Assembly: GCA_021229015.1 (NCBI GenBank)
Contig: CM037783.1
Coordinates: 29,919,401-29,983,400, forward strand
Origin: Solen grandis
Taxonomy: Eukaryota; Mollusca; Bivalvia; Adapedonta; Solenidae
Direction: 5' to 3'
Length of the DNA: 64,000 bases
Both the position numbers and the translations under genes were made by a program. How positions within the stretch are numbered: the stretch's first letter is position 1; every line of letters begins with the position of its first letter. Below the pieces are notes generated by a model, which searched no databases, was not told the origin of the DNA, and was given only the letters and a program-made list of their open reading frames with translations. Below are positions 3,566-18,220 of this stretch, piece by piece.

Positions 3566-3598
3566 GAGAGAATACATACACTAGCACAACATTATGGC
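3566..3598 (+). pseudogene. hAT-derived gene, exon 6, 5' part, cut by Polinton
   Basis: After the acceptor GACAG (3561-3565) the frame reads ERIHTLAQHYG and stops at the Polinton end at 3599. The same exon resumes at 18227 in the same frame. The last six bases (TATGGC, 3593-3598) are repeated at 18221-18226 as the target-site duplication. Confidence 0.85.
3593..3598. repeat. Target-site duplication, left (TATGGC)
   Basis: Directly abuts the element start at 3599. An identical 6-mer lies at 18221-18226. Six-bp duplications are characteristic of Polinton/Maverick integration. Confidence 0.95.
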
Positions 3599-3681
3599 AG
3601 TAGTATAGGTATTGAGCGTCCCTGGCTCACCCCCCCCCCCCCACTCCTCCAAAACCAGGGACGCTCAATACCTATACTACT
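3599..3681. repeat. Terminal hairpin palindrome, left end
   Basis: The first 27 bases (3599-3625, ending GCGTCCCTGG) are perfectly inverted at 3655-3681 (starting CCAGGGACGC). A 29-nt loop containing a long C run separates the arms. This resembles the folded termini of linear DNA viruses. It could allow a self-primed or covalently closed end. Confidence 0.9.
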
Positions 3682-3902
3682 AATTAGTTAAAAAAATCAA
3701 AAAAATCACACTAATGTAAACTTTAAAATAACACATGTGTAAATTTTTAAAAAAAAACAACAATGAAAAATTGGTGTTTTTTTCTTAAACCCCTTTTTTA
3801 CATTTATATAAAAATCCTCACTCTGAATATGGAGGAGGAGGGTTTTCTAACATATTATAAAAATTCAATATTATACAGTTTTTATATTTTTGGATATTAT
3901 CT
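3599..3902 (+). repeat. Polinton terminal inverted repeat, left
   Basis: Matches the reverse complement of 17919-18220 almost completely. Differences are mostly in the C run of the hairpin loop, in A runs and a few substitutions near 3740-3755. The last coding bases of the minus-strand gene 3871-4545 lie inside it. Confidence 0.93.
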
Positions 3903-4545
3903 CCATTGCTTCTTGTCTTCCCTGTTCTATTAATTTTTGCCTTTCTTCTTTTGAATAGTTTTTTGGAACCGCAGAGTTTTTTGTTAATTGTTTAAGCTCA
4001 TTATATTTTTCTAATTCATCTAATATAAGTTTAAATTCTTGTTCAGATATATGTCCATCTGTTAAAGCTTTAGAGATTAAATTTTTTATACTGTTTAATT
4101 TAGTGTTAGCAATAGTTTTAATATTATTATGTTTTTTTATTTTATTCATAAATTTACGTCTAACAATTTTTATAGAGGCTCCAACTCCTCCACATGTAAT
4201 GGCAATAATTTCAAATGGTAATAGAACAGGAATAACCACTCCAACAATTCCTATAATTACACTAGCAGACATTAAAGCTGTGTCTACTCCATCTGTTATA
4301 TTTATTCCTCTTTTATATTTTTTATATAATGCTTTACGAGTATCTCTCTCATTAATTAATGTTTTTTCAATCTCTGAGATTTTTTGTAATCTATAATTTT
4401 GACTTGGTTCCTGGAGTTCACTACGGCTGGAACTTCGTTCCACTTCCGGCTGCTCTGCACTATGGATAGTTCCATAGTCCGGTTGTGAATCTAGTATTTT
4501 ACTATTTAAATCAGGGTATAAATTTGGGGCCGTTGGTTGCTTCAT
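3871..4545 (-). CDS. Polinton-encoded membrane protein with two hydrophobic segments
   Basis: 224 residues. The N-terminal ~50 residues are polar and low in structure and contain a copy of the element's small hairpin repeats (4429-4477). A basic/helical stretch follows. Residues ~85-130 form two hydrophobic segments (ALMSASVIIGIVGVVIPVLL; FEIIAITCGGVGA) like a membrane hairpin, and the rest is charged and helical (HISEQEFKLILDELEKYNEL). I recognise the layout as one seen in Polinton accessory proteins, but not a function. It is the last of four co-directional minus-strand genes, 11 bp downstream of 4557-5093, and ends inside the left inverted repeat. The frame is intact. A membrane-active or minor virion role is only a guess. 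Confidence 0.6.
   Translation of the reverse strand: MKQPTAPNLYPDLNSKILDSQPDYGTIHSAEQPEVERSSSRSELQEPSQNYRLQKISEIEKTLINERDTRKALYKKYKRGINITDGVDTALMSASVIIGIVGVVIPVLLPFEIIAITCGGVGASIKIVRRKFMNKIKKHNNIKTIANTKLNSIKNLISKALTDGHISEQEFKLILDELEKYNELKQLTKNSAVPKNYSKEERQKLIEQGRQEAMEIISKNIKTV
4421..4486. repeat. Hairpin-element cluster inside a coding region
   Basis: GGAAC-TTC-GTTCC at 4429-4441 and a second stem CTATGGA-TAGT-TCCATAG at 4460-4477, with linker CTGCTCTGCAC. It lies in frame in the polar N-terminal part of 3871-4545. Confidence 0.75.
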
Positions 4546-4556
4546 TTTTATATATA

Positions 4557-5093
4557 TTATTTAAATTCAAACAATAACGAGGCAACAGTATTAACTACAG
4601 TTGTATTATCTATCAGACTAACAAAATTAATAACACTTCCAGCCTCAACTAAAAAAGGGCGTTCAAAATTATCATGTTTTGCTGTTGTTGTTTGTAAAGT
4701 AATATCACACCCACTTAAAAGCTCTCCATCAACCAAAACACCAACTCGCACTTCACCACTTGCCCTTTTACTCGACAGACCAATACCAGTAATATAACCA
4801 CGCCTTATCACAACATAACCAACATCTTTTTCTCTACCGGCATTTCCAAATGAAAACACCTTACTTTTAAATAAAGAACCTTTTATTTCAGCACTTATTG
4901 TAATGTTTTTTAAGGATTCCTCTATTCTTTTTACCACAAGGTCTAATTTTGTTAAAGTGTCAAGTAATTCTCTATCTAAATTTGACTTTAAATTATTAAA
5001 TAATTTACTTTCTAAATTTGAGTTTAAATTATTAAAATATGAATCTATCTTACTATTATCTAGTATATACTTTTTAGAACCGAATATATTCAT
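4557..5093 (-). CDS. Fibre-like protein: coiled-coil stalk plus beta-rich head (candidate)
   Basis: 178 residues, intact. Residues ~15-65 show heptad-like spacing with a short repeated pattern (NNLNSNLESKLFNNLKSNLD). After that comes a compact beta-rich domain with many Gly/Val (GYVVIRRGYITGIGLSS; VRVGVLVDGELLSGCDITL) ending in VASLLFEFK. A stalk followed by a beta-sheet head is the architecture of virion fibres and receptor-binding spikes, so this could be the attachment protein at the vertex. No sequence family was recognised, so the role is inferred from shape and from its place beside the penton-like genes. It lies 3 bp downstream of 5096-5824 on the same strand, probably one transcript. 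Confidence 0.55.
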   Translation of the reverse strand: MNIFGSKKYILDNSKIDSYFNNLNSNLESKLFNNLKSNLDRELLDTLTKLDLVVKRIEESLKNITISAEIKGSLFKSKVFSFGNAGREKDVGYVVIRRGYITGIGLSSKRASGEVRVGVLVDGELLSGCDITLQTTTAKHDNFERPFLVEAGSVINFVSLIDNTTVVNTVASLLFEFK

Positions 5094-5095
5094 TT

Positions 5096-5824
5096 TTATT
5101 GATAAAAAATGAATTTTATATAATTTATATGATCTCTAAAACACAACTCATTATTATCTATTTTTTGTCTTTTTTCATCACGAACACTTATATTTAATTC
5201 AGAAATATTTCCTATAGTTAATTTTTTATACTCTGGATTACTAAAGTTTATATTAACAATATCTCCAAATTGATTACTCTCAACAGGAATAACACCAAGA
5301 ATATTACTAGGTGCACCATCAAAGAAATTATAAGTATTATTTATTTGTTCAAGGTAAACATATAATTGTTTATAAGGAACTAAATCTATTGATTGTTCAC
5401 CATGGCATGGGAGGTTAAGAAGAGGTGAATTTTCCAAATAATGACTCTCTTTAAATCCTAACATTTTTCTTAATTCTTTGGTTATTATTAATCCATAGGT
5501 TATATCACTAACTGAACTTATTGTTGGGTATTCTTCTGCTTTTAAACAAGCAATACCATTTTTTTCATCAACAGTTAATGTTATTCTGTTGTCAAAATTT
5601 TTAAATACATCAACTATTTGTTGAAAATTATAAAAACCATCTGAAATTATTTTTTTGGGTGGTGGGGATTTACGAATGTTAGTATCAATCCATTGTCCAA
5701 TTAAATTATACCAACCCATAGTATAAGTAAAACCTCTCAATCCAATTTTCTTATCTCCATGTTTATTATCTATATATTGTTGTAGGTTTATAGGTTCATT
5801 AATATTAGAAATTATATGATTCAT
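5096..5824 (-). CDS. Penton/minor-capsid-like Polinton protein, copy 1
   Basis: 242 residues, open. The C-terminal ~90 residues (from YKQLYVYLEQI to NISELNISVRDE) form the conserved beta-rich domain shared with the neighbouring gene 5879-6950. I associate it with the single-jelly-roll minor capsid (penton) proteins of Polintons, from family memory and not from a search. The N-terminal part has the start MNHIISNINEPINL and a conserved block GFTYTMGWYNLIGQW. Compared with copy 2, about 14 bases are missing near 5147, so the last ~15 residues are in another frame (ending IKFIFYQ instead of the usual hydrophobic strand). This may damage the last beta strand. It shares a start-region motif (TTTTTATTGATAAAAAA) with copy 2. 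Confidence 0.6.
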   Translation of the reverse strand: MNHIISNINEPINLQQYIDNKHGDKKIGLRGFTYTMGWYNLIGQWIDTNIRKSPPPKKIISDGFYNFQQIVDVFKNFDNRITLTVDEKNGIACLKAEEYPTISSVSDITYGLIITKELRKMLGFKESHYLENSPLLNLPCHGEQSIDLVPYKQLYVYLEQINNTYNFFDGAPSNILGVIPVESNQFGDIVNINFSNPEYKKLTIGNISELNISVRDEKRQKIDNNELCFRDHINYIKFIFYQ

Positions 5825-5878
5825 TTTTATTGATAAAAAATAAATTTTATATAATTTAGATGATTTCTAAAACACTTT

Positions 5879-6950
5879 TTAGATGATTTCTAAAACACAA
5901 CTCATTGGTAATCCATGATTATTTATTTTTTTCCCCCATTCATCACAAACACTTATAGTTAATTCAGAAATATTTCCTATAGTTAATTTTTTATACTCTG
6001 AATTATCAAAAATAATATTAACAATATCTCCAAATGATTTATTTTCAACAGGAACAACTCCTAAGATTTTACTAGGTGCTCCATTATGAAAATTATAAGT
6101 ACTATTTATTTGTTCAAGGTGAATATATAATTGTTTATAATTACTAATAATATTAGCTTTTATTTTCTCTTCTTCCATTCTTTCTCTTTCTCTTTCTCTT
6201 TCCATTCTTTCTCTTTCAAACTCTTCTAATATTTCTCTTTCTCTTTCTCTTTCCATTCTTTCTCTTTCTATTCTTTCTCTTTCTCTTTCCATTCTTTCTC
6301 TTTCCATTCTTTCTATTTTTTCTAACTCTTCTATTCTTTCTCTTTCTCTTTCTCTTTCTCTTTCCATTCTTTCCATTCTTTCTCTTTCTATTCTTTCTCT
6401 TTCTCTTTCCATTCTTTCTCTTTCTATTCTTTCTCTTTCTCTTTCCATTCTTTCTATTTTTTCTAACTCTTCTATTCTTTCTCTTTCTATTTTTTCTAAC
6501 TCTTCTATTCTTTCTATTTCTCTTTCAAACTCTTCTAATATTTCTCTTTCTCTTTCTAACCCTTCCATTCTTTCTCTTTCTAACTTTCTATCTCTTCCAT
6601 TCTTTCTCTTTCTATTCTTTCTCTTTTCTTTATTATCTTCTATAAAATTTTTCTGCCTCTTTAATTATTTTTTTTATACTCTTTTTATTTCTTTTTTAGT
6701 TTTAATTTTTCTTCATGATCTTCTATATAATTTTTAAATGCTTCTATTATTGATTCTAAATTACCTACATCTCTTTTTTTTAAATGTTTGAGTGGAGAAT
6801 TTGAAAAACCCATTATTTGAATATTTTCTATATTATACCATCCTATAGTATAATTAAAACTTTTTAATCTAATTTTCTTATCTCCATGTTTATTATCTAT
6901 ATATTGTTGTAGTTTATAGGTTTATCAATATTGGAAATTATATGATACAT
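5879..6950 (-). pseudogene. Penton/minor-capsid-like paralogue, copy 2, with Glu/Arg repeat expansion and frame breaks
   Basis: An open frame at 5879-6568 holds the conserved C-terminal domain (YKQLYIHLEQI … NISELTISVCDE … LPMSCVLEII). The homologous N-terminus is seen upstream from an ATG at 6950 (MYHIISNI; a block matching copy 1's TMGWYNL region lies near 6830-6880), but in other frames. Between them, 6170-6640 is a six-base repeat (CTTTCT type) encoding E/R/M-rich sequence (ERERMERERERIE) that replaces the middle of the protein. At least one frameshift (near 6915-6925) and further changes near 6640-6680 separate the parts. So it is a tandem duplicate of copy 1 invaded by repeat expansion. 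Either the long charged helix was a real novelty before decay, or the gene died through slippage. Confidence 0.65.
6170..6640. repeat. Pyrimidine-strand hexanucleotide repeat (TTTCTC/CTTTCC)
   Basis: Long imperfect array of TTTCTC, TTCCAT and TTCTAT units. Since the unit is six bases, slippage keeps the frame and lengthens a predicted charged single alpha-helix. Longer period copies (~50-100 bp blocks) are also visible. Confidence 0.9.
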
Positions 6951-6966
6951 TTTTTACCGATAAAAA

Positions 6967-8389
6967 ATGATTCCACAAGAATTTAAATATAATAGTGATA
7001 TTAATTATTTACATGGAGGAGTGTTTAATAAAAAAACACTTAACATTATAAAACAAGAAATAATAATTTCATCAGATGGAAACGGAACGGCTGCTCTGCA
7101 CAAAAGTTTTAATGTAGATTTCCCTAATATATTTGAAAAATATTTATTACCTAAAGTTACATCAGAAGAAATAGTAGAAAGGTGGGAAAGTGATTGGATG
7201 TTATTTTGGCAAAATCAATTAAACTTTGCTATTTGGTGTTCAACTACAGGTTGTGGAGTTGACATAAAAAATCATATAAATGCGGGAGGATTAACAGGTT
7301 CTTTATTCTTATTTCATATTTATTATCAAACAAGAAGAATATTATTTGAATTATCTATTCCTCTTCCACAAGATAAAAGTTGGAATGCTTTTAATAATAT
7401 TTATAACAAAGAAGCTTATGAAAGAGTATGTAAAGAGTTTAATGTAAATCCTAATACAGATTGGAGACAGAAAGAATATGCAGATGGTGGTGGTCTTGGA
7501 TATATATATACAAAAGATTCAAATGTTTGGAAAAAAACTTATTTTAAGGATAATTTTCTTTATGTTTTTGATTTATCTGTTTTTAGACTATATAGATTTA
7601 TTTTTGGACCTGGAGGTCCTGTTAAAGGTAAGTCTTATACAAAAAACATTTCTATTGATTATATCAAACAACCAGATGAATTTAAAAACATATGGACAAC
7701 TTTTATTCTTGATGAGTCAAAAGGTTTTACACAAGCAGGAGTTGAAAGAATTAATGAGTCTATAAGAATATATTGTTGGTCTATTCTTGGAGCACAATCT
7801 CAAACTAGAACAGATATTTTAGGAATAGGAACGGCATTTGATGCTCAAAATTTTTTTAATTAATTAAAGTCCTATAGATATACCTAGTCAAATAACAAGA
7901 TATGAAAACACATTAAAATATGCAAGAAGTAAAGTTGATTATGTTTATGGAATAGGATTATATATGTCTCCTAGTGATATGGAATTAAGAATTGGAACAA
8001 TACAAGATTATAATAATGAAATTGTAGTTGCAGAAGAAGAAAAAATTCAAACACTTGGAATAAATAATGAAATAAATAGTCAACCTGTTCCTACGGATGA
8101 AATCCGGCTGCGTAGCACTAAAAAGAAAAATGTTGAACTCAGTGGTACACCAACAAAAAAATCTTTACCAGAACCTACGGACGAAGTCCGGACTAGTGAA
8201 CCAATTGTTTCCCAGCTGGACTATGGAACAGCTGCGGAGCACTCTGTCCGTAGAAAACCTAGTGAACCAATAAAACCTAGTGATCTCATTGAAACAACGG
8301 ATGAACATGAAGATGATAAAATATCTATTATAATAGGAAGTATTGTAGTAGGGGGTTTAGCTTTATTTATTTATGAGTATGTTCTCTAA
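6967..8389 (+). pseudogene. Conserved Polinton structural protein with C-terminal membrane anchor, one frameshift
   Basis: Open frame 6967-7863 (298 residues), then in the +1 frame from 7868 to 8389 (the internal ATG at 7964 is not the start). The break is at a T run (7851-7858). Part 1 is a globular domain with a Cys-containing motif (IWCSTTGCGVDI), a FHIYYQTRRILFEL block and a conserved end (KGFTQAGVERINESI … ILGAQ). I recognise it as a family present in animal Polintons and suspect a virion component. Part 2 continues it (ITRYENTLKYARSKVDYVYG), then a disordered linker that carries hairpin repeats (8091-8265), and ends in a single transmembrane segment (IIIGSIVVGGLALFIYEYVL). It starts 16 bp from the divergent gene at 6950 and its end overlaps the end of 8386-9558 by 4 bp. 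Confidence 0.6.
8091..8265. repeat. Hairpin-element cluster inside a coding region
   Basis: CGGAT-GAA-ATCCG (8094-8106), enclosed by CTACG…CGTAG (8091-8114), and CGGAC-GAA-GTCCG (8178-8190). A weaker copy lies near 8217-8252. In frame these give TDEIRL and TDEVRT in the protein linker. Confidence 0.8.
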
Positions 8390-9558
8390 CGACTAACAGC
8401 TGTATATATCATTCCTATAACTAAAATTAACAAAGCCCATAAATTATTTCCAAACCATGCAACAACATTTCCTGTTGTTTTTAATAACCATCCTACAATA
8501 GCTCCAATAATACCAGGTAATGCTTCTGCTGCTTTTCCTGCAAGTTTTGCTAATAGTTTAGCAATATTTGATAATTGTTTTTTTATCCAATCTCTTACAT
8601 TTCCTCCTTTCCCAGGAGGTTTAGGTGTTACAGTTCCACCACCACCAGGAATAAAAGTCTCAACAATAACACCAATAATCATTCCAAAAGCAGTTAAAAT
8701 ACTAACAATTGTAATCCCTTGTTCTCTAAATAAAGTTTTTATTCTTTCTGCTAATGTTGTATCTTCATTTAATACTTTATGTATTGTCTCTTTTATTCTA
8801 TTTTTTTTCTTAATTTATCTCTAAGGATTCAATTATTTTTTTTTTTTTTCAGAAATGCAATTTATTTGTAGCGCTTCTTTTACAGTGGTCATTGCTTTAA
8901 GGACTCCATCAATATCTCTTTTATCTATAATTGTTTGTGTTCCTTGTTCAATTCCAACTATTTCTTTCACTCTAGTTTCGGCTTCTTCAGAAAAAGATGT
9001 TTCCATTACAGTTTCAGCAGCATTTGCTGCAGTTTCAGCTGCTCTAGGTAAATCAATCATTTCTATATTATCAACATTTGGAATGTTTCTTTCTGCATTT
9101 TGTAATTTTTCTTTGGCTTGTTTTGATAATGGTTCATAACGTATATTCAACAAGTTTCTAATTGCACCTCTTCCAATTTTAACCTCTAAAGTGTTCAAAG
9201 ATATAAAACTATTACCTTTAGTAAGTTTAATAGGTTCTTTACCTGGAACTTTTAAATATATTTTATTATCTATAACTTCAAAGTTTGTAATATCGATATA
9301 TTCTGATTTTACTTCATATTTTTATTCTAAATATTTAAAATATTTATCAACCATATCTTTTCTCTGTTATATTATTAATTCTGTTCCTTTACCAACATTA
9401 GGTTTGCGTAAATCTAACAGACGTTCATCAATAGTTTTCTCTGAATACCTATCATCTATAAAAGGAGTTTCATCATCTTTATCATTATCATCATTATCAT
9501 CATCTTCATCATATACAGGATTTTCAAAATCATATCCTCCTTCTGCCATTTTAAACAT
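8386..9558 (-). pseudogene. Polinton protein with acidic N-terminus and C-terminal amphipathic/membrane region, several frameshifts
   Basis: Three open pieces in order: 9367-9558 (starting MFKMAEGG or MAEGGYDFENPVYD, then a run of Asp), 8833-9198 (…GRGAIRNLLNIRYEPLS…, ending in a Lys run at the 15-T tract) and 8386-8682 (Gly/Pro linker, then AKLLAKLAGKAAEALPGIIG and a hydrophobic helix WALLILVIGMIY). Coding-like sequence continues between the pieces in other frames (for example 9199-9366), so this looks like one gene of about 390 codons broken by small indels, at least one of them in a homopolymer. An acidic Tyr-containing start plus amphipathic and transmembrane helices could suit an internal, membrane-active capsid component. 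That is inference only. It diverges from the capsid gene at 9578 with a 19-bp gap. Confidence 0.55.
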
Positions 9559-9577
9559 TAAAAATTTCCTCTAAAAA

Positions 9578-10819
9578 ATGTCGGCTTACGGAGAAAAACT
9601 AAACCCATACAGAAGAATAAGAGAACCTAGAGGTATTAAAGGTATTCGTCAAAGTGTTGTAATAAGCAATAATCCTTCAACTATTGATCAAAATCAACAA
9701 TTGTTAGTAAGATTTCCTAATCTAAGTGGTAATGATGTTATTGTTCCTGGAACAACAAGATTAGCATTTGAAATTGAAATCAAAAGTGATAGTGATGCAA
9801 ATGCAACAATATATCCAAACATAGGAAGATCAATAATAAATGAAGTTATGACAATTGATGATAGTGATATATTTCATTGTTATATCGATTTATGGAAGTC
9901 TCCTACAGAACGTGAAAATATGGCATACCAAGGAATTGGTAAAATAAACATGTTAAGACATAGAGTTGGATCTGGTAATGCTTCTTCAGATAAACAAGAT
10001 GAAGCTATTGCAAAAGCTTATAAAAATAGATTTTGTATTCCTCTAGATTTTGAATTATTAGAATCACATATGCCTTTTTATCAAGCTGGTCTAGGAGATA
10101 GACTTGAATATGAACTTACATTCAATGATTATAATAAAGTAGTTAAATCTACTGACAAAAATGCTTCTTACGTTATTAAGAATATTTGTTTAGAATTTGA
10201 AAGTGTTTCTGATGTTGAATTAGCTAGAATAATTAGAAATAGATTTAGTGTTAAGATGGTTATTTTATATGATAGAATACTTAGACATAGGAAAATAACA
10301 AAAAACAAATCTGATACACTTTGGAATATTAATCTAAATGTTCCAGCTAGAAGTATGAAAGGTATTCTAATGTTATTTGAAGATCCGGATAGAACATCAA
10401 CAGAACATTATTTTAATCCTGAAATAACAAAAGTAGAAATAACAATAGAAGGAGTACCAAATCAACTATACAGTCAAGGAATGAGAGCTTATCAACAGTG
10501 GGATGAGATAAATAAATTCTTTGCTTTGAATTCAAAAGAGGATAAAGAAATTAGTAAAATGATAAAAAAATTAAATTTTACCTATACAACATTAGAAAAA
10601 TATCTAACAACCAATTATGCATTATGGTTAGATTTACGTTCAACGGATGATAACTCTCTACATGGTTCAGGGAGAAGAATTGAAAATGCATCAGAAGGTA
10701 TAACTATACAAATAACAAAAAACGCAGGATCGGATGAGCCAATAAATGTTTATCTATTTGTTATACAAGATGCACAAATTAATTTTGATGAGGGTAGATT
10801 TAAAGGAATTGTGTATTAG
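9578..10819 (+). CDS. Major capsid protein candidate (double jelly-roll type)
   Basis: 413 residues, intact, starting MSAYGEKLNPYRRIREPRG. An N-terminal arm is followed by a first beta-rich half (LVRFPNLSGNDVIVPGTTRL … FEIEIKS), a central region (MPFYQAGLGDRLEYELTFND) and a second beta-rich half. It ends DEPINVYLFVIQDAQINFDE, the type of C-terminal strand found in Polinton capsid proteins. It is shorter than many Polinton major capsid proteins, so assignment rests on fold-like pattern, on being the longest structural frame, and on position just before the packaging ATPase. Structure prediction should show two stacked jelly rolls with a pseudo-hexagonal trimer interface. Without that, another abundant virion protein remains possible. 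Confidence 0.6.
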   Translation: MSAYGEKLNPYRRIREPRGIKGIRQSVVISNNPSTIDQNQQLLVRFPNLSGNDVIVPGTTRLAFEIEIKSDSDANATIYPNIGRSIINEVMTIDDSDIFHCYIDLWKSPTERENMAYQGIGKINMLRHRVGSGNASSDKQDEAIAKAYKNRFCIPLDFELLESHMPFYQAGLGDRLEYELTFNDYNKVVKSTDKNASYVIKNICLEFESVSDVELARIIRNRFSVKMVILYDRILRHRKITKNKSDTLWNINLNVPARSMKGILMLFEDPDRTSTEHYFNPEITKVEITIEGVPNQLYSQGMRAYQQWDEINKFFALNSKEDKEISKMIKKLNFTYTTLEKYLTTNYALWLDLRSTDDNSLHGSGRRIENASEGITIQITKNAGSDEPINVYLFVIQDAQINFDEGRFKGIVY

Positions 10820-10890
10820 TGGAACTTTGTTCCATAGTGTTTCACAGTGCTCCGCAGCTGGACTTTGTCCATAGTGTTTCATAGTGAAGT
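10819..10890. repeat. Hairpin-element cluster, intergenic
   Basis: GGAAC-TTT-GTTCC (10821-10833) and TGGAC-TTT-GTCCA (10859-10871) joined by the linker ATAGTGTTTCACAGTG. It starts right after the capsid gene's stop codon. Confidence 0.85.
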
Positions 10891-10895
10891 ATATA

Positions 10896-11045
10896 AATTA
10901 CTAAATAATTACTAAGTATTACTAAATAATTACTATATATGCCTTAAATAATTACTAAATAATTACTAAATAATTACTAAATAATTACTATATATACCTT
11001 AAATAATTATTAAATAATTACTAAGTATTACTAAATAATAAATTA
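10896..11045. repeat. AT-rich tandem repeat (TAAATAATTAC units)
   Basis: About a dozen imperfect 11-bp units (CTAAATAATTA) with TATATACC interruptions fill the gap between capsid and ATPase genes. Function is unknown. It could hold the ATPase promoter or an origin-like AT-rich tract. Confidence 0.85.
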
Positions 11046-11050
11046 GAAAA

Positions 11051-11613
11051 ATGGAACTACCTAAATATCCACACTGTGCAATTATTTGTGGACAAACAGG
11101 ATGTGGAAAAACAGAATTTGTTTTAGATCTTTTAGAAAAAGAATATAGGGGTGTATTTAAATATATTATTATACTATGTCCAACTATTCAATGGAATAAA
11201 ACATATAAAAATAGAGAATGGATCTCTGATGTTAAAAACCCTAAAACTAAAAATTTAATAATTGTTAATCCTATTAGTAATGGAGAAGAAAAACTACAAG
11301 AACTATTAAGAATATTTTTTAATAAATATGCAGGATATCCTACTCTATATATTATAGATGATTGTAGTGCAACTAAACAATTAACAAAGAAAAGAGATAT
11401 GTTATCAGAGTTAGCTTTTTCAGGTAGACATGCTGAACAAAGTGTATGGGTTATATCACAAAGATACAATTCAGTTTTAAAAGATTTAAGGGAACAAACA
11501 AAATGGTTATGTATTTTTTATACAAAAGATAGGGATAGTTAAAAAATGATGTTATCCCTACATTAGAAGAAAGAGAAAGAATTAAAGAAGAATTGAAAAA
11601 AAAAGAAACATAG
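11051..11613 (+). pseudogene. DNA-packaging ATPase (FtsK/HerA type), frame broken near the end
   Basis: The open frame 11051-11542 (163 residues) begins MELPKYPHCAIICGQTGCGK: GQTGCGKT is the Walker A motif. LYIIDDCSA is Walker B with two Asp. SGRHAEQSVWVISQRY matches the conserved downstream (sensor/arginine-type) motif of viral packaging ATPases. The family pumps the genome into preformed capsids. After DRDS a one-base loss in an A-rich run (11540-11547) gives a stop. The next frame continues NDVIPTLEERERIKEELKKKET to TAG at 11613, so nearly the whole protein is readable. It sits directly downstream of the capsid gene and the AT repeat. The core is intact; whether the lost tail matters is unknown. 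Confidence 0.85.
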
Positions 11614-11651
11614 TAAATTAATTTTAAAAACTGATCAACCTACAAATTATT

Positions 11652-12386
11652 TTGTCTGCGGATAAAATCCGTATTAAAATGGAGATTTTATCTATAAGCT
11701 GGACTTTGTCCATATTAAATTTTTTTACTAATATATGTACTTTAAGTTTAATAGGTTATCTCACTTATAATTATAGAAAATTAACTTTAAACATAAAAAA
11801 AATCTATTTTAAATTTTATAAAATGAATGCTGAAGAAATACTAGAAACACCAAATCCACAGAATAATGCTACGGAACGTATACATAATGACAATGAAAAA
11901 AGAGAAAGACTTTTAGCTCTTGTCTCTGGAGGAATGAGTAAACAATATTTAGGAAAAGAAATCTCAATTTTAGATATTGAAAAATTACCAGATGAAGAAA
12001 TTGATAAATTATATATTCGATATGAAGCTAAATTAGGAGCAAGTATGACAAAAACTTTAGGGAATTCTTTTATTAATTTATATGTTATGGGAGTGTCTAA
12101 ATATTTTAAAGTTAAAAATCAACCTAAATTAATAGAAGATTTAAATGAAGATCCTTTTTTAAATAATGCTTTAAATTCTTTATGTTGTGAATTGTATTAT
12201 AAATATGGAATGTTTCTTGCTCCTTTTACAACAGTATTAACAACAATAGAAAATATTGATTTTGAGCAAAGTCCAGACTTTGTCCATAGTCCAGTTGTGG
12301 AAAAGGAAGAACAACCTTATGGAACAGCTGTAAAACATGTTAGTGAAAATCAACAACCAGAACTTTGTACCATTAAAAATGAGTGA
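11652..12386 (+). CDS. Conserved Polinton protein of unknown function
   Basis: 244 codons if the first ATG-equivalent is used. The true start is more likely 11679 (MEILSISW…) or 11823 (MNAEEILETPN), because the first ~9 codons are made of hairpin repeat. Between 11715 and 11815 there is a hydrophobic stretch (FTNICTLSLIGYLTYNY), so starting at 11679 would give a signal-anchor. The main part is helical and soluble (KRERLLALVSGGMSKQYLG; EAKLGASMTKTLGNSFINLY). I recall similar proteins in Polintons but cannot assign a function. The C-terminal tail (from ~12260) is again derived from decayed hairpin repeats. Its last bases overlap the start of the next gene by 8 bp (ATG 12379), suggesting co-expression. 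Confidence 0.6.
   Translation: MSADKIRIKMEILSISWTLSILNFFTNICTLSLIGYLTYNYRKLTLNIKKIYFKFYKMNAEEILETPNPQNNATERIHNDNEKRERLLALVSGGMSKQYLGKEISILDIEKLPDEEIDKLYIRYEAKLGASMTKTLGNSFINLYVMGVSKYFKVKNQPKLIEDLNEDPFLNNALNSLCCELYYKYGMFLAPFTTVLTTIENIDFEQSPDFVHSPVVEKEEQPYGTAVKHVSENQQPELCTIKNE
11655..11715. repeat. Hairpin-element cluster
   Basis: CGGAT-AAA-ATCCG (11659-11671) and TGGAC-TTT-GTCCA (11700-11712), with a weaker AGAT-TTT-ATCT between them. It lies upstream of, or in, the apparent N-terminal extension of the next gene. Confidence 0.8.
12266..12375. repeat. Decayed hairpin elements in a gene tail
   Basis: AGAC-TTT-GTCC near 12276 and GAAC-TTT-GTAC near 12361 are one mismatch away from the perfect stems seen elsewhere. 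They supply the last ~40 codons of 11652-12386. Confidence 0.6.
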
Positions 12387-12861
12387 AGTACAAAATCCAG
12401 ATCCTGTTAAAAAAAGTAAAAACCCAAAAAGAGTTGAAGCAGGTAAAAGAATTGCAGAAGCAAAAAAAATAAAAGCTGAATTAAAAAGAAAAGAAATGGA
12501 AGAAATGAAGAAAGAAAACATTCAATTAAAATCTATTACGGACGAAGTCCGGCTGCCACAGCCAGACCGTAGCATTACAAAAGAGGACGGACAAAGTCCG
12601 GCTACGGAACGGTTGTATAACACTGTTAAACACAATGATGAAGTTAAAGAAGTTCAACATAGTGTTCCGCAATGCTCCGCAGCTGGACAAAGTCCACAAC
12701 CAGATTTCATCCATGTAAATATATACAAAAATTATATACCTTTATGTCTAATTGGAGTTGTTGGATTGGGATTATATATGTATAATTCTAAACAAGTAAA
12801 CCCCATGCAGAAAGAAATTAAACCACAAGAAAAAGTTGAATATGACCCATTTAATCTTTAA
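12379..12861 (+). CDS. Basic coiled-coil protein with C-terminal transmembrane segment
   Basis: 160 residues from the ATG at 12379 (MSEVQNPDPVKK). The N-terminal ~45 residues are Lys/Glu rich and helical (NPKRVEAGKRIAEAKKIKAE) and could bind DNA or form a coiled coil. Residues ~50-110 are a disordered linker made largely of hairpin-repeat sequence (TDEVRL; EDGQSPATER; AAGQSPQPD). Residues ~115-135 are a transmembrane helix (YIPLCLIGVVGLGLYMY), followed by a short polar tail ending DPFNL. The order basic helix, linker, membrane segment recurs in small Polinton proteins; a role at the virion core or membrane is inferred only. The frame is intact. Confidence 0.65.
   Translation: MSEVQNPDPVKKSKNPKRVEAGKRIAEAKKIKAELKRKEMEEMKKENIQLKSITDEVRLPQPDRSITKEDGQSPATERLYNTVKHNDEVKEVQHSVPQCSAAGQSPQPDFIHVNIYKNYIPLCLIGVVGLGLYMYNSKQVNPMQKEIKPQEKVEYDPFNL
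12539..12710. repeat. Hairpin-element cluster inside a coding region
   Basis: CGGAC-GAA-GTCCG (12539-12551), CGGAC-AAA-GTCCG (12588-12600) and TGGAC-AAA-GTCCA (12684-12696), plus a one-mismatch AGAT-TTC-ATCC near 12703. All are within the linker of 12379-12861 and keep its frame. Confidence 0.85.
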
Positions 12862-12955
12862 TGCTACGCAGCTGGACTTTGTCCATAGCCGTTCCGTAGC
12901 TGGACTTCGTCCGTAGTGTTTCACAGTGTTTTACAGCTGAACAAAGTTCACAAAT
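12862..12955. repeat. Hairpin-element cluster, intergenic
   Basis: Three hairpins in a row: TGGAC-TTT-GTCCA (12873-12885), GGAC-TTC-GTCC (12902-12912) and TGAAC-AAA-GTTCA (12938-12950). They are joined by GCTACGCAGC-like and GTGTTTCACAGTG linkers. This is the densest cluster and fills the whole space between two genes. Confidence 0.9.
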
Positions 12956-12969
12956 TTGTTTTCTAAAAA

Positions 12970-13197
12970 ATGGCGGATGAAAAACAAATTGTTAATACAG
13001 CTTATCATGGAGTATTGATTTCTGCTTTTACAGTGGGTTATTCAGAATTAATTAGAAAACTTTTTAGAACAAATACAACCAAACTACAAATGGATTTTAA
13101 AGATATTTCAATGTTAACTCTTGATATTATATTATCTATTTATACAAAAGAATTCTTAGTTAAGCAAGGTATTATTTCTGATAATATTATGAAGTAA
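12970..13197 (+). CDS. Small Polinton membrane-associated protein
   Basis: 75 residues, intact, starting MADEKQIVNTAYHG. It alternates short hydrophobic helices (VLISAFTVGYSELI; ISMLTLDIILSIYT) with basic residues. The size and the start resemble short conserved Polinton proteins of unknown role. It lies between two hairpin clusters, in the same direction as the capsid operon-like block. Confidence 0.6.
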   Translation: MADEKQIVNTAYHGVLISAFTVGYSELIRKLFRTNTTKLQMDFKDISMLTLDIILSIYTKEFLVKQGIISDNIMK

Positions 13198-13202
13198 TGT
13201 TT

Positions 13203-13282
13203 CAATGGAACAAAGTTCCAGCTGTGAAACACCACAGCCAGACTTTGTCCGTAATGCTACGCAGCTGGATTTAATCCATATT
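13203..13282. repeat. Hairpin-element cluster, intergenic
   Basis: TGGAAC-AAA-GTTCCA (13206-13220), GCTGTG…CACAGC (13219-13238), a one-mismatch AGAC-TTT-GTCC and TGGAT-TTA-ATCCA (13266-13278). It extends the downstream frame in front of its likely ATG. Confidence 0.85.
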
Positions 13283-13285
13283 AAA

Positions 13286-13713
13286 ATGGCAAGTGCAATA
13301 GCGATGATGATTGGTGGAGCGGCATTGAATGCTGCTGCATTTGGAGGTGGTAATTATTTATTTTCTCTTATTGATAAGAATAAAAGTAATGAAGAGAAAA
13401 AAAGACATGATAAAGCAATGGAAGAATATCAAGCTTCACATAATAAATGGAGTGAAGAAAGAACACAAAGATTAGATTTTTTAAATGAACAAACGAAAAA
13501 GGAAGATCATGCTGTAAAAACCTTTGAAGATGTTGATGAAGCAATGAAAGAATATTACTATATCACAGGTAAACAATTAGAACCTTTACCTAAAGAACCT
13601 ACATTAAGTGATTTTTATACTCCTTCTGAAGATCAAAAAATAAAGAGATTGTATTTATTATTGGTGGAATGACATTAACTGGATTTGTTGCATGGAAGCT
13701 ATATAAATGGTAA
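13286..13713 (+). pseudogene. Polinton helical protein with N- and C-terminal hydrophobic segments, frameshift near end
   Basis: The likely start is ATG 13286 (MASAIAMMIGGAALNAAAFGG). The upstream open frame to 13205 is hairpin repeat. An Ala/Gly-rich hydrophobic N-terminus is followed by a long charged helix (KKRHDKAMEEYQASHNKWSEE … FEDVDEAMKEYYY). The frame ends at 13672, but an indel near 13640-13648 (A-rich) separates it from a continuing frame that ends in a second membrane segment (FIIGGMTLTGFVAWKLYKW) at 13713. It overlaps the convergent polymerase gene by 15 bp. The pattern of two membrane ends and a helical middle suggests an internal membrane or scaffold protein. No family function is known to me. 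Confidence 0.55.
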
Positions 13714-13934
13714 AGTATCTATTCCATTGTCACATATATATCTTTTATCATCAAATGGAGACATACTTATTTTATTTACTTCATTAATATACATTTCATG
13801 TTTATCAGAATTTAATGTATACATCTTATTTATTTGTTGTGTTTCATTAAATAAACAATTTTTATAATCATCAAACTTTATATCTTTAGTTATTGTTGTT
13901 TTACCTATTCCTTTTAATTTCTTTATTTCCTGTA

Positions 13935-13965
13935 GTGCTACGCAGCCGGACGAAGTCCGTAAAGC
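13935..13965. repeat. Hairpin element inside the polymerase gene
   Basis: CGGAC-GAA-GTCCG (13947-13959) with flank GCTACGCAGC. It adds about ten residues in frame between two conserved polymerase blocks, a clear case of in-frame insertion in an essential enzyme. Confidence 0.85.
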
Positions 13966-16087
13966 TTCAGTTAAAGTAAAAGAATAAGCTTTACTTCTTA
14001 AGAAAACTATCTCATACATAGGGTTTCCATTTAGTTCATCTTTAAATTTTCCAATTACTTTTTTATTTTTTTGTGAATGAAGTGGGTGATCTTTAGGATA
14101 ATCAGATGTATCTAAATATTCATCTTTTATTTTTTCTAAATCTTTATAAACATCTTTTGTTGTTATTGATAAGAAGATACTATCCGTATCTGAAGCAACT
14201 AGTTCATTCTTTTCCCATAGTTTATTAACAACATTATAATAAAATTGATACATTAATAATTTAGAATAATCTAAAATTGCTTGTCCTAAATAAATAGGTT
14301 TATTAAATGTAACAGAAGTAACATTATTTACAATTGCAACAAGATTATCATTGAATATAACTGAATCTTTAAAATTAGGTTTATTTATATATTTTCTTAC
14401 TTCTTCTCTATTGGTAAGTAGATTAATCTCATTTCTTCCTCTTATATTTTCTAAAGTCTTTCCATAGAAAGAATTATTCATTAATTTCCAAAGATCCTTT
14501 TCAAAGTTATATTTTTACTTATTTAATTTTATATATTCTTTTAAAATTGAATGATGTATAATATATTTTTTTCTTTTAAAGTAAGAAATAATTTTTCTTC
14601 TTTCCTAAGGTTTATCTCCTAATAAATTTAATTGATAATTAGATAATTGTTCTTTATTTATTTTCATCTTTTCAGGTGCTAAAGGATATTTATTTGTTTT
14701 CTTTTTACATTCATCTGTATACTCTAAATCACATTCTACTATACAACCTCTACCTTTTGGAATATTTTTGTAATAATTAGGATTTTCTTCCCATTTAAAA
14801 TCTTTGGTTGGAAGAGGTTGAGACATTGCCCATCCATAAAGATTATTCGCATCTAAATATAATAAATATTTTTCTTCAAAAAACTTATTTAAATCTCCAC
14901 CATTCTTTAATATTTCTAACGCTTCTTCTTCTTCATAATCATCTGCTATTCGAATATCACCATCAACATAATTAGGAGTATATTTATTATAAGCTTTTAC
15001 ATGTCTAGGACCTAATACTCCTGAAAATCCTCCTCTTATTCCTTTCTCAAACATTTGTAGCATATCTATATCAGTTAATAATTCTAACTCTACTCCAGTA
15101 TATTTTAGTCCACATTGCCATGTTAATCCTGGAGCAGAATAACAATAACAAGGATCTATATTATGATGTTTTAAGAAAAAACTTCTAAATTTTTCAAACG
15201 CATCTGCTAAAATAAGAACATCTGTCTTTAAATATAATTCATGATAATCTTTTAAAGATTTACATTTATAAAAAATTTTTTTTTAGATTAATATTTTAAT
15301 CTGGTAATTGTGTTTCATTTAATTTTTCTATGGAATCTACATATTCATATGGATATTTAAGTCTTTAATTTCATTTTCTAAAATAGGAAATTCATCTATT
15401 GATTTAGCTATATCTGATAACCCTTTAAATCTAAATAATATTCTTCTGAACTTTTTGAAAGAAGTTTTACTTTATTATAATTATCTTCATATTTCATAAG
15501 TTCTTCAATTAGAAAATGGAAATCATAATTAGAACCATTATGAAAAAATACAGGTATTAACTTTGTTACTTTACCTTCTTTAGTATTACATGATTGACAT
15601 GCTGCTCCTCTATATTTCCCAGAAAGATGATTATGTTCTCTTACTTTATCACTTTGTTTTTCAAAACCTTTTTCACAAATATAACATTCAGTTGCTTCTT
15701 GAAATTCATCTTCTTCATACTTATTTAATATTGGTTTTTTCTGTTCATTAAGATAGATCTTATAATTTATTTCTTTAAATATCTTTATTACTTTTTTTCT
15801 ATTGCATCATTTCCAACATATGAAAAGTATTGTGATTTATATATATTTGGATAAATTTTTTGTAATTTTAAATTTAAAATATTTTTTTTGTTAGCATTAT
15901 AGATTTACAATGTTCATTATCATAACATATTTCTTTATGATTAATTAATGTTATTTCTCTTTGAAATCCTTGTAAACAATTTCTACATGTAAATGATTTA
16001 TGTTTATTCTTATCATACTTGAAACTATCTAAATTTTTAATTAAACAATAATGGGTATTTTCATTACTTTCAATATAAGAGAAACTA

Positions 16088-16160
16088 CACGGAACGGTTG
16101 CTCTGCACTATTTTCATTTCTATGGAACTTTGTTCCAGCTGTGAAACACTGTTTGAAACA
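16088..16160. repeat. Hairpin element inside the polymerase gene
   Basis: TGGAAC-TTT-GTTCCA (16123-16137) with linkers CGGAACGGTTGCTCTGCAC and GCTGTGAAACACTG. The frame of the polymerase N-terminal block ends inside it (stop at 16085-16087), so this insertion, or later change in it, broke the gene. Confidence 0.85.
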
Positions 16161-16836
16161 TAAACTGGATATAAAGATTGTTTATTAGATTGATCTTCTA
16201 ATGCAAAAACATTTATAGATATATTATTTTGTCTCTCTACTTTTGAAATATCTTTTATTTTAACTGGATATTCAATCCCATCCATATTAAGTTTATTTTC
16301 ATATGGTTTATATTTTGTCACTCTTTCTTTGTTATCATCTGCAGGGAATAACTTTGATAGTATTGCCCAGAGAAAACATTTGTTATCATTTTTATTTTTA
16401 ACATTAATAATATTATTTGATTTAAATTGAAGAGGTATATAAGATGAAGCTTTCTGATAATCATATTTATATTGTTTTACTTCTACACTTTTAATATTTC
16501 TAAAAACAAAACCAGATCCTCTTTCTTGAAATTTATCTACCCAAGCTTCAAATTTATCTCTCAAACTATTATAGAATTCTTTTATATTATTTTGTGTTTG
16601 AATAACTTGAACAGGATGAGAGTAATGACTTTCTATTATATCAGTAACTAAAGGGGTTAAAAATTCACTTGTTATTATTATTTTTATTTTTAAAGGAAAG
16701 TTACTAATAACTATTCTTTTTCTTAATAACTTAATATATTTAATTATATTTTCTTCATCTATATCATCAATAATAGTTTCACTAATAAGATCTTTAAAAT
16801 TTCTTGGTCTCATTTTAAAAGAAATAAATTTTAATT

Positions 16837-17022
16837 TCACTGTGTTCCACAGTCATAGGATTTTTTTTTTTTTTTTTTTTTTTGTTTTGATAATTTTTTT
16901 TGATTAGGCTTAAGACATTGTTTACATGCAGATTTAATACCAAATCTTCTTCCTGTTTGTTTGTAATATTCACTTAGTAGTTTATATTCTTTACATTTTG
17001 TACAAACTTTTCGATCTGCCAT
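16837..17022 (-). CDS. Small zinc-ribbon protein (CxxC…CxxC)
   Basis: 61 residues. The two Cys pairs (VCTKCKEYK … SACKQC) with a YYKQTG spacer form a compact treble-clef-like zinc site, as in the short Cys4 proteins coded next to Polinton polymerases. The tail is a poly-Lys run from a long T tract (16861-16883) that is prone to slippage, so the exact end is uncertain. Its last codons overlap the polymerase ATG by 4 bp, so both are probably on one minus-strand transcript. A nucleic-acid-binding role is likely. Confidence 0.6.
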   Translation of the reverse strand: MADRKVCTKCKEYKLLSEYYKQTGRRFGIKSACKQCLKPNQKKLSKQKKKKKKKSYDCGTQ

Positions 17023-17054
17023 TTTTTAAGAAAACAATTTTAAGCTATTTAAAA

Positions 17055-17921
17055 ATGGATCACCCAAAAATATATTGTTTACGTTGTAAAAAAAATACTG
17101 AAAATAATTCAGTAGAACAAGTAACAACAACCAATAATAGACAAATGTTAAAAGGTAAATGTTCTGAGTGTGGATCTAAGAAAAATAGATTTATAGGAAC
17201 AAAAGGGGATAAATTAGCAGATGAATTACATCATAGAGTTATAAAGAAATTTCCTAAAAGACGTGTTTTTGTTGATTCAATAGATAAAATATGGGCTGTT
17301 GATTTAGTAGATATGCAACAATATTCAAAACAAAATAAAAAATTTTTTTTAAAAAAACATTATTTGAAGAAAGAAAACCAATTTTTATTTGGTCAGATAA
17401 AGGATCTGAATTTTATAATCGACAAGTAAAAGAATTGTTAAAAGATAATAACATAAAGTTATATTCAACAGAGAATGAAGAAAAATCTAGTGTAGTAGAA
17501 CGTTGGATAGGAACTATGAAACAACATATGTTTTAAATATTTTACTGCTCATGAAACTACTAAATATTATGATGTATTAGATCAATTAGTTAAAGATTAT
17601 AATAATACAATTCATTCTTCAATTAAAATGACACCTGTTGAAGCAAGTAAATCAGAAAATACATTAACAGTGTATGAAAATTTATATCCAGAAGAAGAAA
17701 AGAAAATTAAGAAACCTAAATTCAAAGTTGGAGATAGAGTAAGAATAACAAAAAAGAAAGGTAAATTTGAAAAGGGTTATACTACTCGTTGGACTAGAGA
17801 AATATTTGTAATTGAACAAGTTTTAAATACAAATCCTGTTACTTATAAAATAAAAGATTTAAAAGATGAAGACATTATAGGTAGTTTTTATGAACAAGAA
17901 TTACAGATAACTGAGTTCTAG
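17055..17921 (+). pseudogene. Polinton integrase (DDE, retroviral type), internally deleted and frameshifted
   Basis: Starts MDHPKIYCLRCKKNTEN. The N-terminus is a Cys4 zinc ribbon (YCLRCKK … KCSECGSKK), followed by the helical segment (DELHHRVIKKFPKRRV) and the DDE core. First Asp is in WAVDLVDM (~17301), second in WSDKGSEFYN (~17394), Glu in STENEEKSSVVERW. The first two acidic residues are only about 31 codons apart, against roughly 55-65 in the family, and the junction is a T/A homopolymer, so part of the core is lost. The frame changes there and again after KQHMF (17533). The C-terminal SH3/chromo-like part is intact (FKVGDRVRITKK…GYTTRWTREIFVIEQV). It is divergent from the zinc-ribbon gene and ends exactly at the right inverted repeat. 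Normally it inserts the linear element and makes the 6-bp duplication. Confidence 0.88.
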
Positions 17922-18220
17922 ATAATATCCAAAAATATAAAAACTGTATAATATTGAATTTTTATAATATGTTAGAAAACCCTCCTCCTCCATATTCAGA
18001 GTGAGGATTTTTATATAAATGTAAAAAAGGGGTTTAAGAAAAAAACACCAATTTTTCATTGTTGTTTTGTTTTAAACATTTACACATGTGTTATTTTAAA
18101 GTTTACATTAGTGTGATTTTTTTGATTTTTTTTAACTAATTAGTAGTATAGGTATTGAGCGTCCCTGGTTTTGGAGGAGTGGGGGGGGGTGAGCCAGGGA
18201 CGCTCAATACCTATACTACT
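17919..18220 (-). repeat. Polinton terminal inverted repeat, right
   Basis: Inverted copy of 3599-3902. Its inner edge coincides with the integrase stop codon (TAG, 17919-17921), so the integrase gene runs exactly up to the repeat. Confidence 0.93.
18142..18220. repeat. Terminal hairpin palindrome, right end
   Basis: Arms 18142-18168 and 18194-18220 are perfectly complementary (27 bp) around a 25-nt loop with a G run. Read outward, the loop has the same orientation as at the left end, so the two ends are in the same 'flip' state. Confidence 0.9.

What the first reader, a model, noticed from the sequence alone, without database searches (positions are those of the whole stretch)
4421..16160. 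A family of ~11-15-bp hairpins with compensatory stem changes has colonised the Polinton
I count 17 perfect hairpins with a 3-nt loop (4429, 8094, 8178, 10821, 10859, 11659, 11700, 12539, 12588, 12684, 12873, 12902, 12938, 13206, 13266, 13947, 16123) plus several one-mismatch forms. Stems occur as GGAC/GTCC, GGAT/ATCC, GGAAC/GTTCC and GAAC/GTTC, often extended by T/A or C/G. Loops are TTT, TTC, AAA, GAA, AAA-like or TTA. Both stem strands change together, which points to selection for pairing or to copying through a folded form. They come in clusters joined by recurring linkers (GCTACGCAGC, GTGTTTCACAGTG) that can themselves pair, like the double-hairpin elements of some fungal mitochondria or the palindromic elements of Rickettsia. 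I saw none in the host DNA of this window, although I did not search it exhaustively.
Basis: partly seen in the sequence, partly recalled or inferred. Interest (0 to 1): 0.88.

Follow-up and report, generated by a model that had tools for sequence, protein, structure and literature searches.

The report
Tiny jumping hairpins inside a Polinton
A virus-like transposon (Polinton) carries 11 full copies of a 25-27-letter double-hairpin DNA unit, some of them inside genes at places where its aligned relatives lack it, and the unit likely spread by being copied in folded single-stranded form into TA sites, which would make it one of the smallest mobile DNAs.

Summary
All 17 hairpins exist. Family-type hairpins number 16 in the 14.6-kb Polinton against 0.1 in shuffles, and 1 against 0.4 in the other 49.4 kb. 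Most belong to one 25-27-bp double-hairpin unit, TA|RTGCTACGCAGCYGGACTTYGTCCR|TA and variants; the 'linkers' are its second hairpin. Eleven full units were found, all in the Polinton. The products show insertion: five in-frame stretches of hairpin DNA (7, 9, 13, 16 and 18 residues) interrupt two genes where 15-26 aligned relatives lack the unit; the linkers holding three of them vary in length in relatives too. Five of 11 units have TA on both sides. The S loop occurs both ways round relative to its neighbour. Loops read purine-N-A on one strand in 38 of 40 hairpins, a class that includes the extra-stable ssDNA GNA triloops. Stem changes are coordinated, but the covariation measures least affected by relatedness do not all stand out. 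I favour copying through folded single strands during Polinton replication; a TA-specific transposase is the main rival. The mechanism is inferred. The host genome could not be searched, and no sibling copy's DNA was available.

The parts
3599..18220 (.). Host element: Polinton, 14,622 bp, 6-bp target-site duplication TATGGC, terminal inverted repeats
   Evidence: Ends and TSD; ATPase (Pfam Pox_A32, 6.8e-12); 3353 homologues of the probable major capsid protein
8094..8118 (-). Canonical 25-bp unit, TA on both sides; 9-residue in-frame insert in the probable minor capsid gene
   Evidence: (absent in 15 of 15 aligned relatives)
13935..13959 (+). Canonical 25-bp unit, TA on both sides, inside the probable pPolB reading frame; S loop flipped (GAA)
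12861..12885 (+). Canonical 25-bp unit, TA on both sides; left TA is that of a stop codon (TAA 12859-12861)
12888..12913 (+). 26-bp unit with CCG-TTC-CGT left hairpin, TA on both sides
12926..12950 (+). 25-bp unit (TGAACAAAGTTCA stem), preceded by an extra small hairpin TGTTTCACA (12917)
13254..13278 (+). Canonical 25-bp unit, TA on both sides; loop TTA
10847..10871 (+). 25-bp unit after an extra small hairpin (10838); the 35-bp whole is TA-bordered
12672..12696 (+). 25-bp unit with AAA loop; part of the third insert in the membrane-protein gene
12588..12613 (-). 26-bp unit; part of the second insert in the membrane-protein gene
13206..13232 (-). 27-bp unit (6-bp S stem)
16123..16149 (-). 27-bp unit (6-bp S stem), AAA loop relative to L
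12539..12575 (-). 37-bp TA-bordered unit: 25-bp unit carrying 12 extra nt in the L hairpin; first insert in the membrane-protein gene
   Evidence: (25.9 bits)
7081..7101 (+). 21-nt insert made of small hairpins (CGGAACG + TGCTCTGCA), 7 residues NGTAALH in the probable minor capsid N-terminal part
   Evidence: absent in 16 of 16 aligned relatives; P0132 has 1 other residue there
12589..12636 (+). Second insert in the membrane-protein gene, about 48 nt, 16 residues
12661..12714 (+). Third insert in the membrane-protein gene, about 54 nt, 18 residues
8217..8250 (+). S hairpin whose loop appears to hold another small unit (model hits 8224-8242 -, E 0.038, and 8204-8250 +, E 0.33): probable nested insertion
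8178..8190 (-). S hairpin in a TA-bordered 16-bp piece (8178-8193)
4428..4442 (+). S hairpin in ORF 3871-4545, with small hairpin at 4451-4459
10819..10834 (+). S hairpin, TA-bordered; left TA is that of the probable major capsid stop codon TAG 10817-10819
11659..11671 (-). S hairpin
11700..11712 (+). S hairpin (model hit 11694-11712, E 0.02)
12274..12286 (+). S hairpin, imperfect outer pairs
12358..12372 (+). S hairpin, imperfect
12701..12713 (+). S hairpin, imperfect
13239..13251 (+). S hairpin, imperfect
16088..16108 (+). 21-bp piece of small hairpins bordered by TA
16839..16853 (+). Single L-type hairpin ACTGTGTTCCACAGT, outermost member

Best explanation
The Polinton at 3599-18220 carries 11 full copies and further pieces of one 25-27-bp double-hairpin unit, no full copy of which was found in the rest of the window, and the units likely spread inside the element by being copied, in folded single-stranded form, into TA dinucleotides while the element replicated. 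Shown directly: one sequence family; two stems whose sides change together; confinement of the full unit to the Polinton within this window; five in-frame inserts absent from the same places in the aligned relatives; TA at 12 of 22 borders; both S-loop orientations relative to L. Inferred: the inserts were gained rather than lost in all those relatives; TA is a target-site duplication; one unit is nested in another's loop; the single strands come from strand-displacement synthesis by the element's protein-primed polymerase (a Polinton-type B2 polymerase shows strong strand displacement in vitro: PMC3511435, abstract); a nascent strand that reaches a hairpin switches template to or from a unit at a TA, which would add units at new sites, repair stem arms against each other and flip loops. 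The purine-N-A loops, often closed by C-G, would help the units fold as single-stranded DNA (GNA mini-hairpins: PMC4686876, passages). The units look like tolerated passengers in linkers, at gene ends and in a probable polymerase frame, not like parts of the element's machinery.
For: Loop-3-specific excess. Eleven full units in the Polinton, 0 elsewhere in 64 kb. Profile hits: the best 14 are all in the Polinton (7 of them the training set), best other hit 10.9 bits. Covariance model: its 14 hits at E<0.05 in 104 kb are all in the Polinton, 11 of them its training set. Paired change: 12 cells changed on both sides against 3.8 shuffled for S, 10 against 3.3 for the whole unit, incl. an L pair. 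Units absent in relatives: 26 of 34 found were aligned, 15 of 103, 16 of 103. Linker lengths: 17 residues against 4 in 19 of 26 relatives, 16 against 1 in 20 of 26, 21 against 2-10. TA at 12 of 22 unit borders, TA being 11.3% of the element's dinucleotides. S loop relative to L: 6 TTY, 1 TTA, 4 AAA/GAA; 38 of 40 loops purine-N-A, 27 of 40 closed by C-G. All 12 stretches folded as DNA are below the shuffle mean, z -1.3 to -4.4. Arm homogenisation and spacer inversion are known marks of template switching (PMC8604942, PMC8794818, abstracts).
Against: No sibling copy's DNA was seen; gain is inferred from proteins at 46-70% identity. The three linkers of the membrane protein vary in length without units: 6 of 26 relatives have 6-13 residues at the first, 5 of 26 have 9-13 at the second, 8 of 26 have 6-10 at the third. 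The region after 8170 is too variable to judge. Six of 11 units lack TA on one or both sides; the second and third membrane-protein inserts show no clean TA pair; several TA-bordered units are tandem neighbours, so border counts are not independent; a 2-base border cannot prove duplication. Constant 25-bp bodies fit a transposase better than template switching. Relatedness of copies is not removed from the covariation test, and the measures least sensitive to it are weak: pairs with change on both sides 256/500 and 21/500 shuffles as high, pair types 447/500 and 173/500. Some DNA folds differ from the drawn two-hairpin form (12535-12577, 12862-12955, 13199-13282). Template switching in Polintons was not tested.
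Confidence: 0.5

Rival explanations
1. The units are extremely short non-autonomous DNA transposons, moved in trans by a TA-specific transposase (Tc1/mariner type) of the host, like Submariner MITEs in Pandoravirus.
For: Five of 11 units are TA-bordered on both sides with a constant body of 25 bp (26 bp in one); TA-duplicating MITEs colonised a viral genome (PMC4495683, passages).
Against: 25 bp is far below the 100-600 bp given for MITEs in that paper; the unit's two ends are not inverted copies of each other; L-only and S-only pieces, pieces of 16, 21, 35 and 37 bp, and flipped hairpins are not expected from cut-and-paste; no Tc1/mariner-type transposase among the 18 reading frames scanned, though the rest of the window was not scanned for one.
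Confidence: 0.25
2. The hairpins are functional signals, e.g. 3-prime-end or termination hairpins as in Mimivirus, multiplied and kept paired by selection.
For: Three of six genes in the + strand block 9578-13672 have hairpin clusters starting exactly at the stop codon's TA; both stem sides change together.
Against: At least 11 of 21 S hairpins lie inside reading frames; aligned relatives lack the inserted ones; no Rfam family matches 3500-18300.
Confidence: 0.1
3. The units are a repeat of the host nuclear or organelle genome that merely also landed in this Polinton.
For: Cannot be excluded: the host genome was not searchable here.
Against: 0 full units in 49.4 kb of other DNA in the window; 0 hits of two exact unit patterns in viral contigs and of one in genome contigs, which are collections of viral and prokaryote sequences.
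Confidence: 0.1
4. Each hairpin arose on the spot by template switching or end-joining fill-in of local sequence, without any mobile unit.
For: Polymerase theta can build stem-loops from two paired bases (PMC11292364, abstract).
Against: The same 25-bp sequence recurs in unrelated contexts, so most copies derive from one another.
Confidence: 0.05

Closest known systems
Double-hairpin elements (DHE) of Allomyces mitochondrial DNA and repetitive hairpin elements (RHE) of sponges
   Same: Short hairpin-forming repeats, scattered, differing between relatives, proposed as mobile (PMC2800124 section 23; PMC5910586 passages)
   Different: Those are organellar; the Allomyces elements are reported to lack flanking duplications, whereas TA borders are common here. 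DHE size and any coding inserts are recalled, not read.
GC clusters of yeast mitochondrial DNA (GC42)
   Same: Palindromic, GC-rich, putative short duplication (AG), merging and shuffling of units (PMC4478555, passages)
   Different: Mitochondrial, 42 bp, other target; mostly intergenic
Palindromic repeats of Volvox organelle DNA
   Same: Hairpins with 3-5-nt loops, both orientations, nested in one another (PMC2670323, passages)
   Different: The mitochondrial ones are confined to intergenic and intronic DNA and one rRNA module; average 50 nt; other loops; mainly organellar
Submariner MITE of Pandoravirus salinus
   Same: A mobile family that multiplied inside one viral genome, TA duplication (PMC4495683, passages)
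   Different: 243 bp with long terminal inverted repeats and a known transposon relative
Rickettsia palindromic elements
   Same: In-frame hairpin inserts inside conserved genes (recalled)
   Different: Longer, bacterial (recalled); no sequence tested against them

Membership tests
Double-hairpin / hairpin elements (DHE, RHE, GC clusters) | Unit made of hairpins shared as a dispersed sequence family | tested here: met
Double-hairpin / hairpin elements (DHE, RHE, GC clusters) | Presence/absence between relatives at the same site | tested here: met
   At protein level only, relatives 46-70% identical:
Double-hairpin / hairpin elements (DHE, RHE, GC clusters) | Resides in an organelle genome | tested here: not met
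   Units lie in a Polinton with TIRs and 6-bp TSD; so 'works like', not a member
Double-hairpin elements of Allomyces | No flanking duplication | tested here: inconclusive
   5 of 11 units TA-bordered on both sides; feature
MITE of Tc1/mariner type | TA target-site duplication | tested here: inconclusive
   12 of 22 borders TA; no empty-site DNA
MITE of Tc1/mariner type | Terminal inverted repeats shared with an autonomous element | tested here: inconclusive
   The unit's two ends are not inverted copies of each other; host genome not searchable
MITE of Tc1/mariner type | Length 100-600 bp (as given in PMC4495683) | tested here: not met
   25-27 bp
Known structured RNA family | Rfam match at gathering score | tested here: not met
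   0 matches in 3500-18300
Mimivirus-type 3-prime hairpin signal | Hairpin marks transcript 3-prime ends | not testable with these tools
   No transcript data; rule recalled and seen only as a reference title in PMC5799277; the paper itself is not held
Extra-stable ssDNA mini-hairpins | GNA (or GNNA) loop with at least two G-C pairs | tested here: inconclusive
   19 of 40 loops GNA, 19 of 40 A-N-A, 27 of 40 closed by C-G; rule from PMC4686876 passages; G-C pairs per stem not scored
Rickettsia palindromic elements | In-frame hairpin insert tolerated in protein genes | tested here: met
   Feature recalled; inserts
Rickettsia palindromic elements | Sequence kinship | not tested
   No such sequence was fetched

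The most novel reading that the evidence does not exclude
A 25-bp replicative parasite of a Polinton: a double hairpin with no gene of its own that multiplies by hijacking the element's protein-primed, strand-displacing DNA synthesis, entering TA sites as a folded single strand, nesting in its own loops and being tolerated as in-frame peptide inserts in capsid, membrane and polymerase genes. It would be one of the smallest mobile genetic elements known and the counterpart, in a virus-like nuclear element, of mitochondrial double-hairpin elements.
Probability: 0.35. Interest if true: 0.9.

Novelty: new variant of a known kind. Interest (0 to 1): 0.72.

Why it matters
The mobile hairpins of this size in the papers I saw come from organelles, where their way of moving is disputed (DNA transposition or RNA copies). 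A virus-like nuclear element that is thought to replicate by strand displacement offers a second setting: thousands of related capsid proteins are known (3353 hits), so gain, loss, target site and in-frame tolerance could be counted. If movement is tied to single-stranded replication intermediates, the old question of how palindromic elements spread without a transposase becomes directly testable. It would also show how capsid and polymerase genes can gain peptides from selfish DNA.

Tried and rejected
Searching public DNA for units: two exact unit patterns in viral contigs and one in genome contigs gave 0 hits. A paired-core pattern gave 4 loci judged unrelated: L002 and L005 share one stretch, L003 and L004 hold tandem repeats, and none has a full-unit model hit at E<0.05. 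DNA of related elements: capsid protein, capsid alignment and minor-capsid alignment found none in viral contigs; genome contigs gave one distant piece, L001, whose best model hit is 13.1 bits, E 0.49.

Hints of units in other elements: of 137 proteins scanned for translated units (P0121-P0257; the 120 capsid hits were left out), three reached 7 identities and none of their reversed copies did. One of the three, P0162, is ordinary conserved family sequence. P0142 (ALQSELRSS) and P0146 (ERSSGSE, 6 residues more than P0134) remain leads only; P0242 and P0253 were noticed by eye.

The L hairpin alone is not specific: outside the Polinton there are 23 against 30.8 expected. Covariance model R1 had a misplaced pair and was replaced by R2. 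One L match (10759) was left out of the loop count. Rejected: chance palindromes; a known RNA family. The Polinton integrase as mover is unlikely because the Polinton's own duplication is 6 bp, not TA.

Literature: ten searches. Among listed titles and abstract starts for Polinton with hairpin and palindromic (8 of 8 papers), with bivalve and hairpin (3 of 3), with protein-primed and similar terms (12 of 44 listed) and with adintovirus, MITE and similar (15 of 796 listed) I saw no report of such units in Polintons; this does not cover unlisted papers or papers outside that library.

Full report
WHAT CARRIES THE HAIRPINS. The element at 3599-18220 has identical 20-bp tips and the 6-bp duplication TATGGC. 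It encodes a packaging ATPase (Pfam Pox_A32). The frame 9578-10819 has 3353 homologues, among them one from the clam Mactra antiquata. I call it the major capsid protein, 6967-8389 the minor capsid gene, 13699-16840 (minus) the polymerase pPolB and about 17.0-17.9 kb the integrase from recalled gene order and motifs; Pfam gave no match for the two capsid frames or for the three polymerase pieces. The element is decayed: the polymerase frame is in pieces and the minor capsid gene shifts frame near 7863.

THE OBSERVATION. All 17 hairpins are there. The excess is specific to a 3-nt loop: 16 hairpins with stem >=5 and >=3 G/C, against 0-3 at each other loop length and 0.97 in shuffles; family-type 16 against 0.115. 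The other 49.4 kb has 1 family-type hairpin against 0.37.

ANATOMY. Reading the sites side by side shows that hairpin and 'linker' form one unit: a small hairpin L (TGC-TAC-GCA, TGC-TCC-GCA, TGT-TTC-ACA, TGT-TTT-ACA, or CCG-TTC-CGT), then GC, then the strong hairpin S (YGGAC-TTY-GTCCR and its GGAT and GGAAC forms). Eleven full units of 25-27 bp were found in the 64 kb, all in the Polinton. A 25-column profile ranks 14 Polinton sites (7 its training set) above the best other site, which scores 10.9 bits. A covariance model over the window and five fetched loci (104 kb) puts 14 Polinton sites at E<0.05 and nothing else; 11 are its training set. L pieces, S pieces, an interrupted unit (12539-12575) and a unit that seems to sit inside another hairpin's loop (8217-8250) also occur. 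The small L hairpin alone is enriched in the element (20 against 4.2) but is common elsewhere by chance (23 against 30.8).

PAIRING. In 21 S hairpins (14 distinct rows) 89% of cells pair, and 12 cells changed on both sides against 3.8 in shuffles. In the 11 full units 96.6% pair, with 10 such cells against 3.3, and one L pair changes on both sides too. These controls do not remove relatedness; the measures that resist it better are weak (pairs with change on both sides: 256/500 and 21/500 shuffles as high; pair types: 447/500 and 173/500). In 38 of 40 hairpins the loop reads purine-N-A on one strand, against 41% of the element's 3-mers, and 27 of 40 are closed by C-G (the copies are related, so no probability is given, and the L match at 10759 was left out). 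GNA loops with G-C pairs are the known extra-stable single-stranded DNA mini-hairpins (PMC4686876, passages); 19 of the 40 loops are GNA and 19 A-N-A. With L on the left the S loop is TTY in 6 units, TTA in 1 and AAA or GAA in 4: S occurs both ways round. Folded as DNA, 12 of 12 stretches lie below the shuffle mean, though three regions fold partly otherwise than drawn.

GAIN. Two genes were compared with relatives' proteins. In the gene 12379-12861, 26 of the 34 relatives found were aligned. The window has three extra stretches, coded by the hairpin DNA at 12539-12575, 12589-12636 and 12661-12714; none of the 26 shows these peptides. Between fixed anchors the window has 17, 16 and 21 residues; the relatives have 4 in 19 of 26, 1 in 20 of 26, and 2-10. 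Six, five and eight of the 26 are themselves longer there, with other residues. In the minor capsid gene the unit at 8094-8118 makes a 9-residue insert absent in 15 of 15 aligned relatives, and 7081-7101 a 7-residue insert absent in 16 of 16, one of which has a single other residue there; 103 relatives had been found and I chose mainly the best-scoring. A unit also lies in the probable polymerase frame (13935-13959). That the inserts were gained here rather than lost in all relatives is inferred.

BORDERS. Five of 11 units have TA on both sides, and 12 of 22 borders are TA against 11.3% TA in the element. Pieces at 8178-8193, 10819-10834, 10837-10871, 12539-12575 and 16088-16108 are also TA-bordered. 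Three of the six genes in the block 9578-13672 have hairpin clusters that start at the TA of their stop codon (10817, 12859, 13195). Against a simple rule: six of 11 full units lack TA on one or both sides, and two of the three membrane-protein inserts show no clean TA pair.

MECHANISM. Shown: one dispersed family, insert-like differences from relatives, frequent TA borders, both loop orientations, coordinated stem change. Inferred: movement as folded single strands by template switching during strand-displacement replication. Arm homogenisation and spacer inversion are what template switching does (PMC8604942 and PMC8794818, abstracts), and a Polinton-type polymerase displaces strands in vitro (PMC3511435, abstract). 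A TA-specific transposase acting in trans is the main rival and explains constant borders better. A 3-prime-end signal is weakened by the 11 or more of 21 S hairpins inside reading frames, but the stop-codon placement deserves a transcript test.

COMPARISON. It works like the double-hairpin, GC-cluster and palindromic repeats of organelles (passages or one section of each paper) but is not a member by location. It shares colonisation of a virus-like genome and TA with Submariner MITEs but is a tenth of their length and lacks inverted ends.

LIMITS. The host genome was unreachable in 16 tries. No DNA of a sibling or close relative was available. All evidence of gain is at protein level.

Noticed in passing
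window 3599-3680 and 18139-18220: Each Polinton tip is itself an ~82-bp foldback: the terminal AGTAGTATAGG...CCCTGG is followed, after a C-rich spacer, by its own inverted copy, so the element ends could form hairpins.
   Followed up: partly
window 10817-10819, 12859-12861, 13195-13197: Hairpin clusters begin exactly at the TA of the stop codon of three neighbouring genes.
   Followed up: partly
P0142, P0146, P0242, P0253 (relatives' proteins): Extra residues resembling translated hairpin cores (ALQSELRSS, ERSSGSE, LERSP, EQSS) hint at units in other Polintons; DNA not seen.
   Followed up: partly
window ~29-44 kb against ~46-59 kb: The same hairpins recur in order (32944/51671, 34434/53175, 41920/55624, 42939/56643), suggesting a large direct duplication; a retroelement reading frame (37104-41240, RT, RNase H, integrase) lies in the first copy, and the spacing is about 5 kb shorter in the second.
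   Followed up: no
window 5879-6568: An apparent paralogue of ORF 5096-5824 carries a 15/36-bp repeat coding for Glu/Arg-rich repeats.
   Followed up: no
window 10896-11039: AT-rich 11/55-bp tandem repeat between the probable major capsid and ATPase genes, just after a hairpin cluster.
   Followed up: no
window 9578-10819: The probable major capsid protein lacks about 8-9 residues (KKTTIRISG region) that nearly all of the 12 aligned relatives have, another sign of decay.
   Followed up: no
L001: A contig binned as an archaeal (Diapherotrites) MAG carries a distant relative of this element's capsid gene; likely a binning contaminant. A Thiodiazotropha MAG protein may be the same case (P0070).
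   Followed up: no
L002 63-100, L005 738-775: Two viral contigs share GGACTTCGTCC-16 nt-GGACTTCGTCC, similar mini-hairpins without the L part.
   Followed up: no
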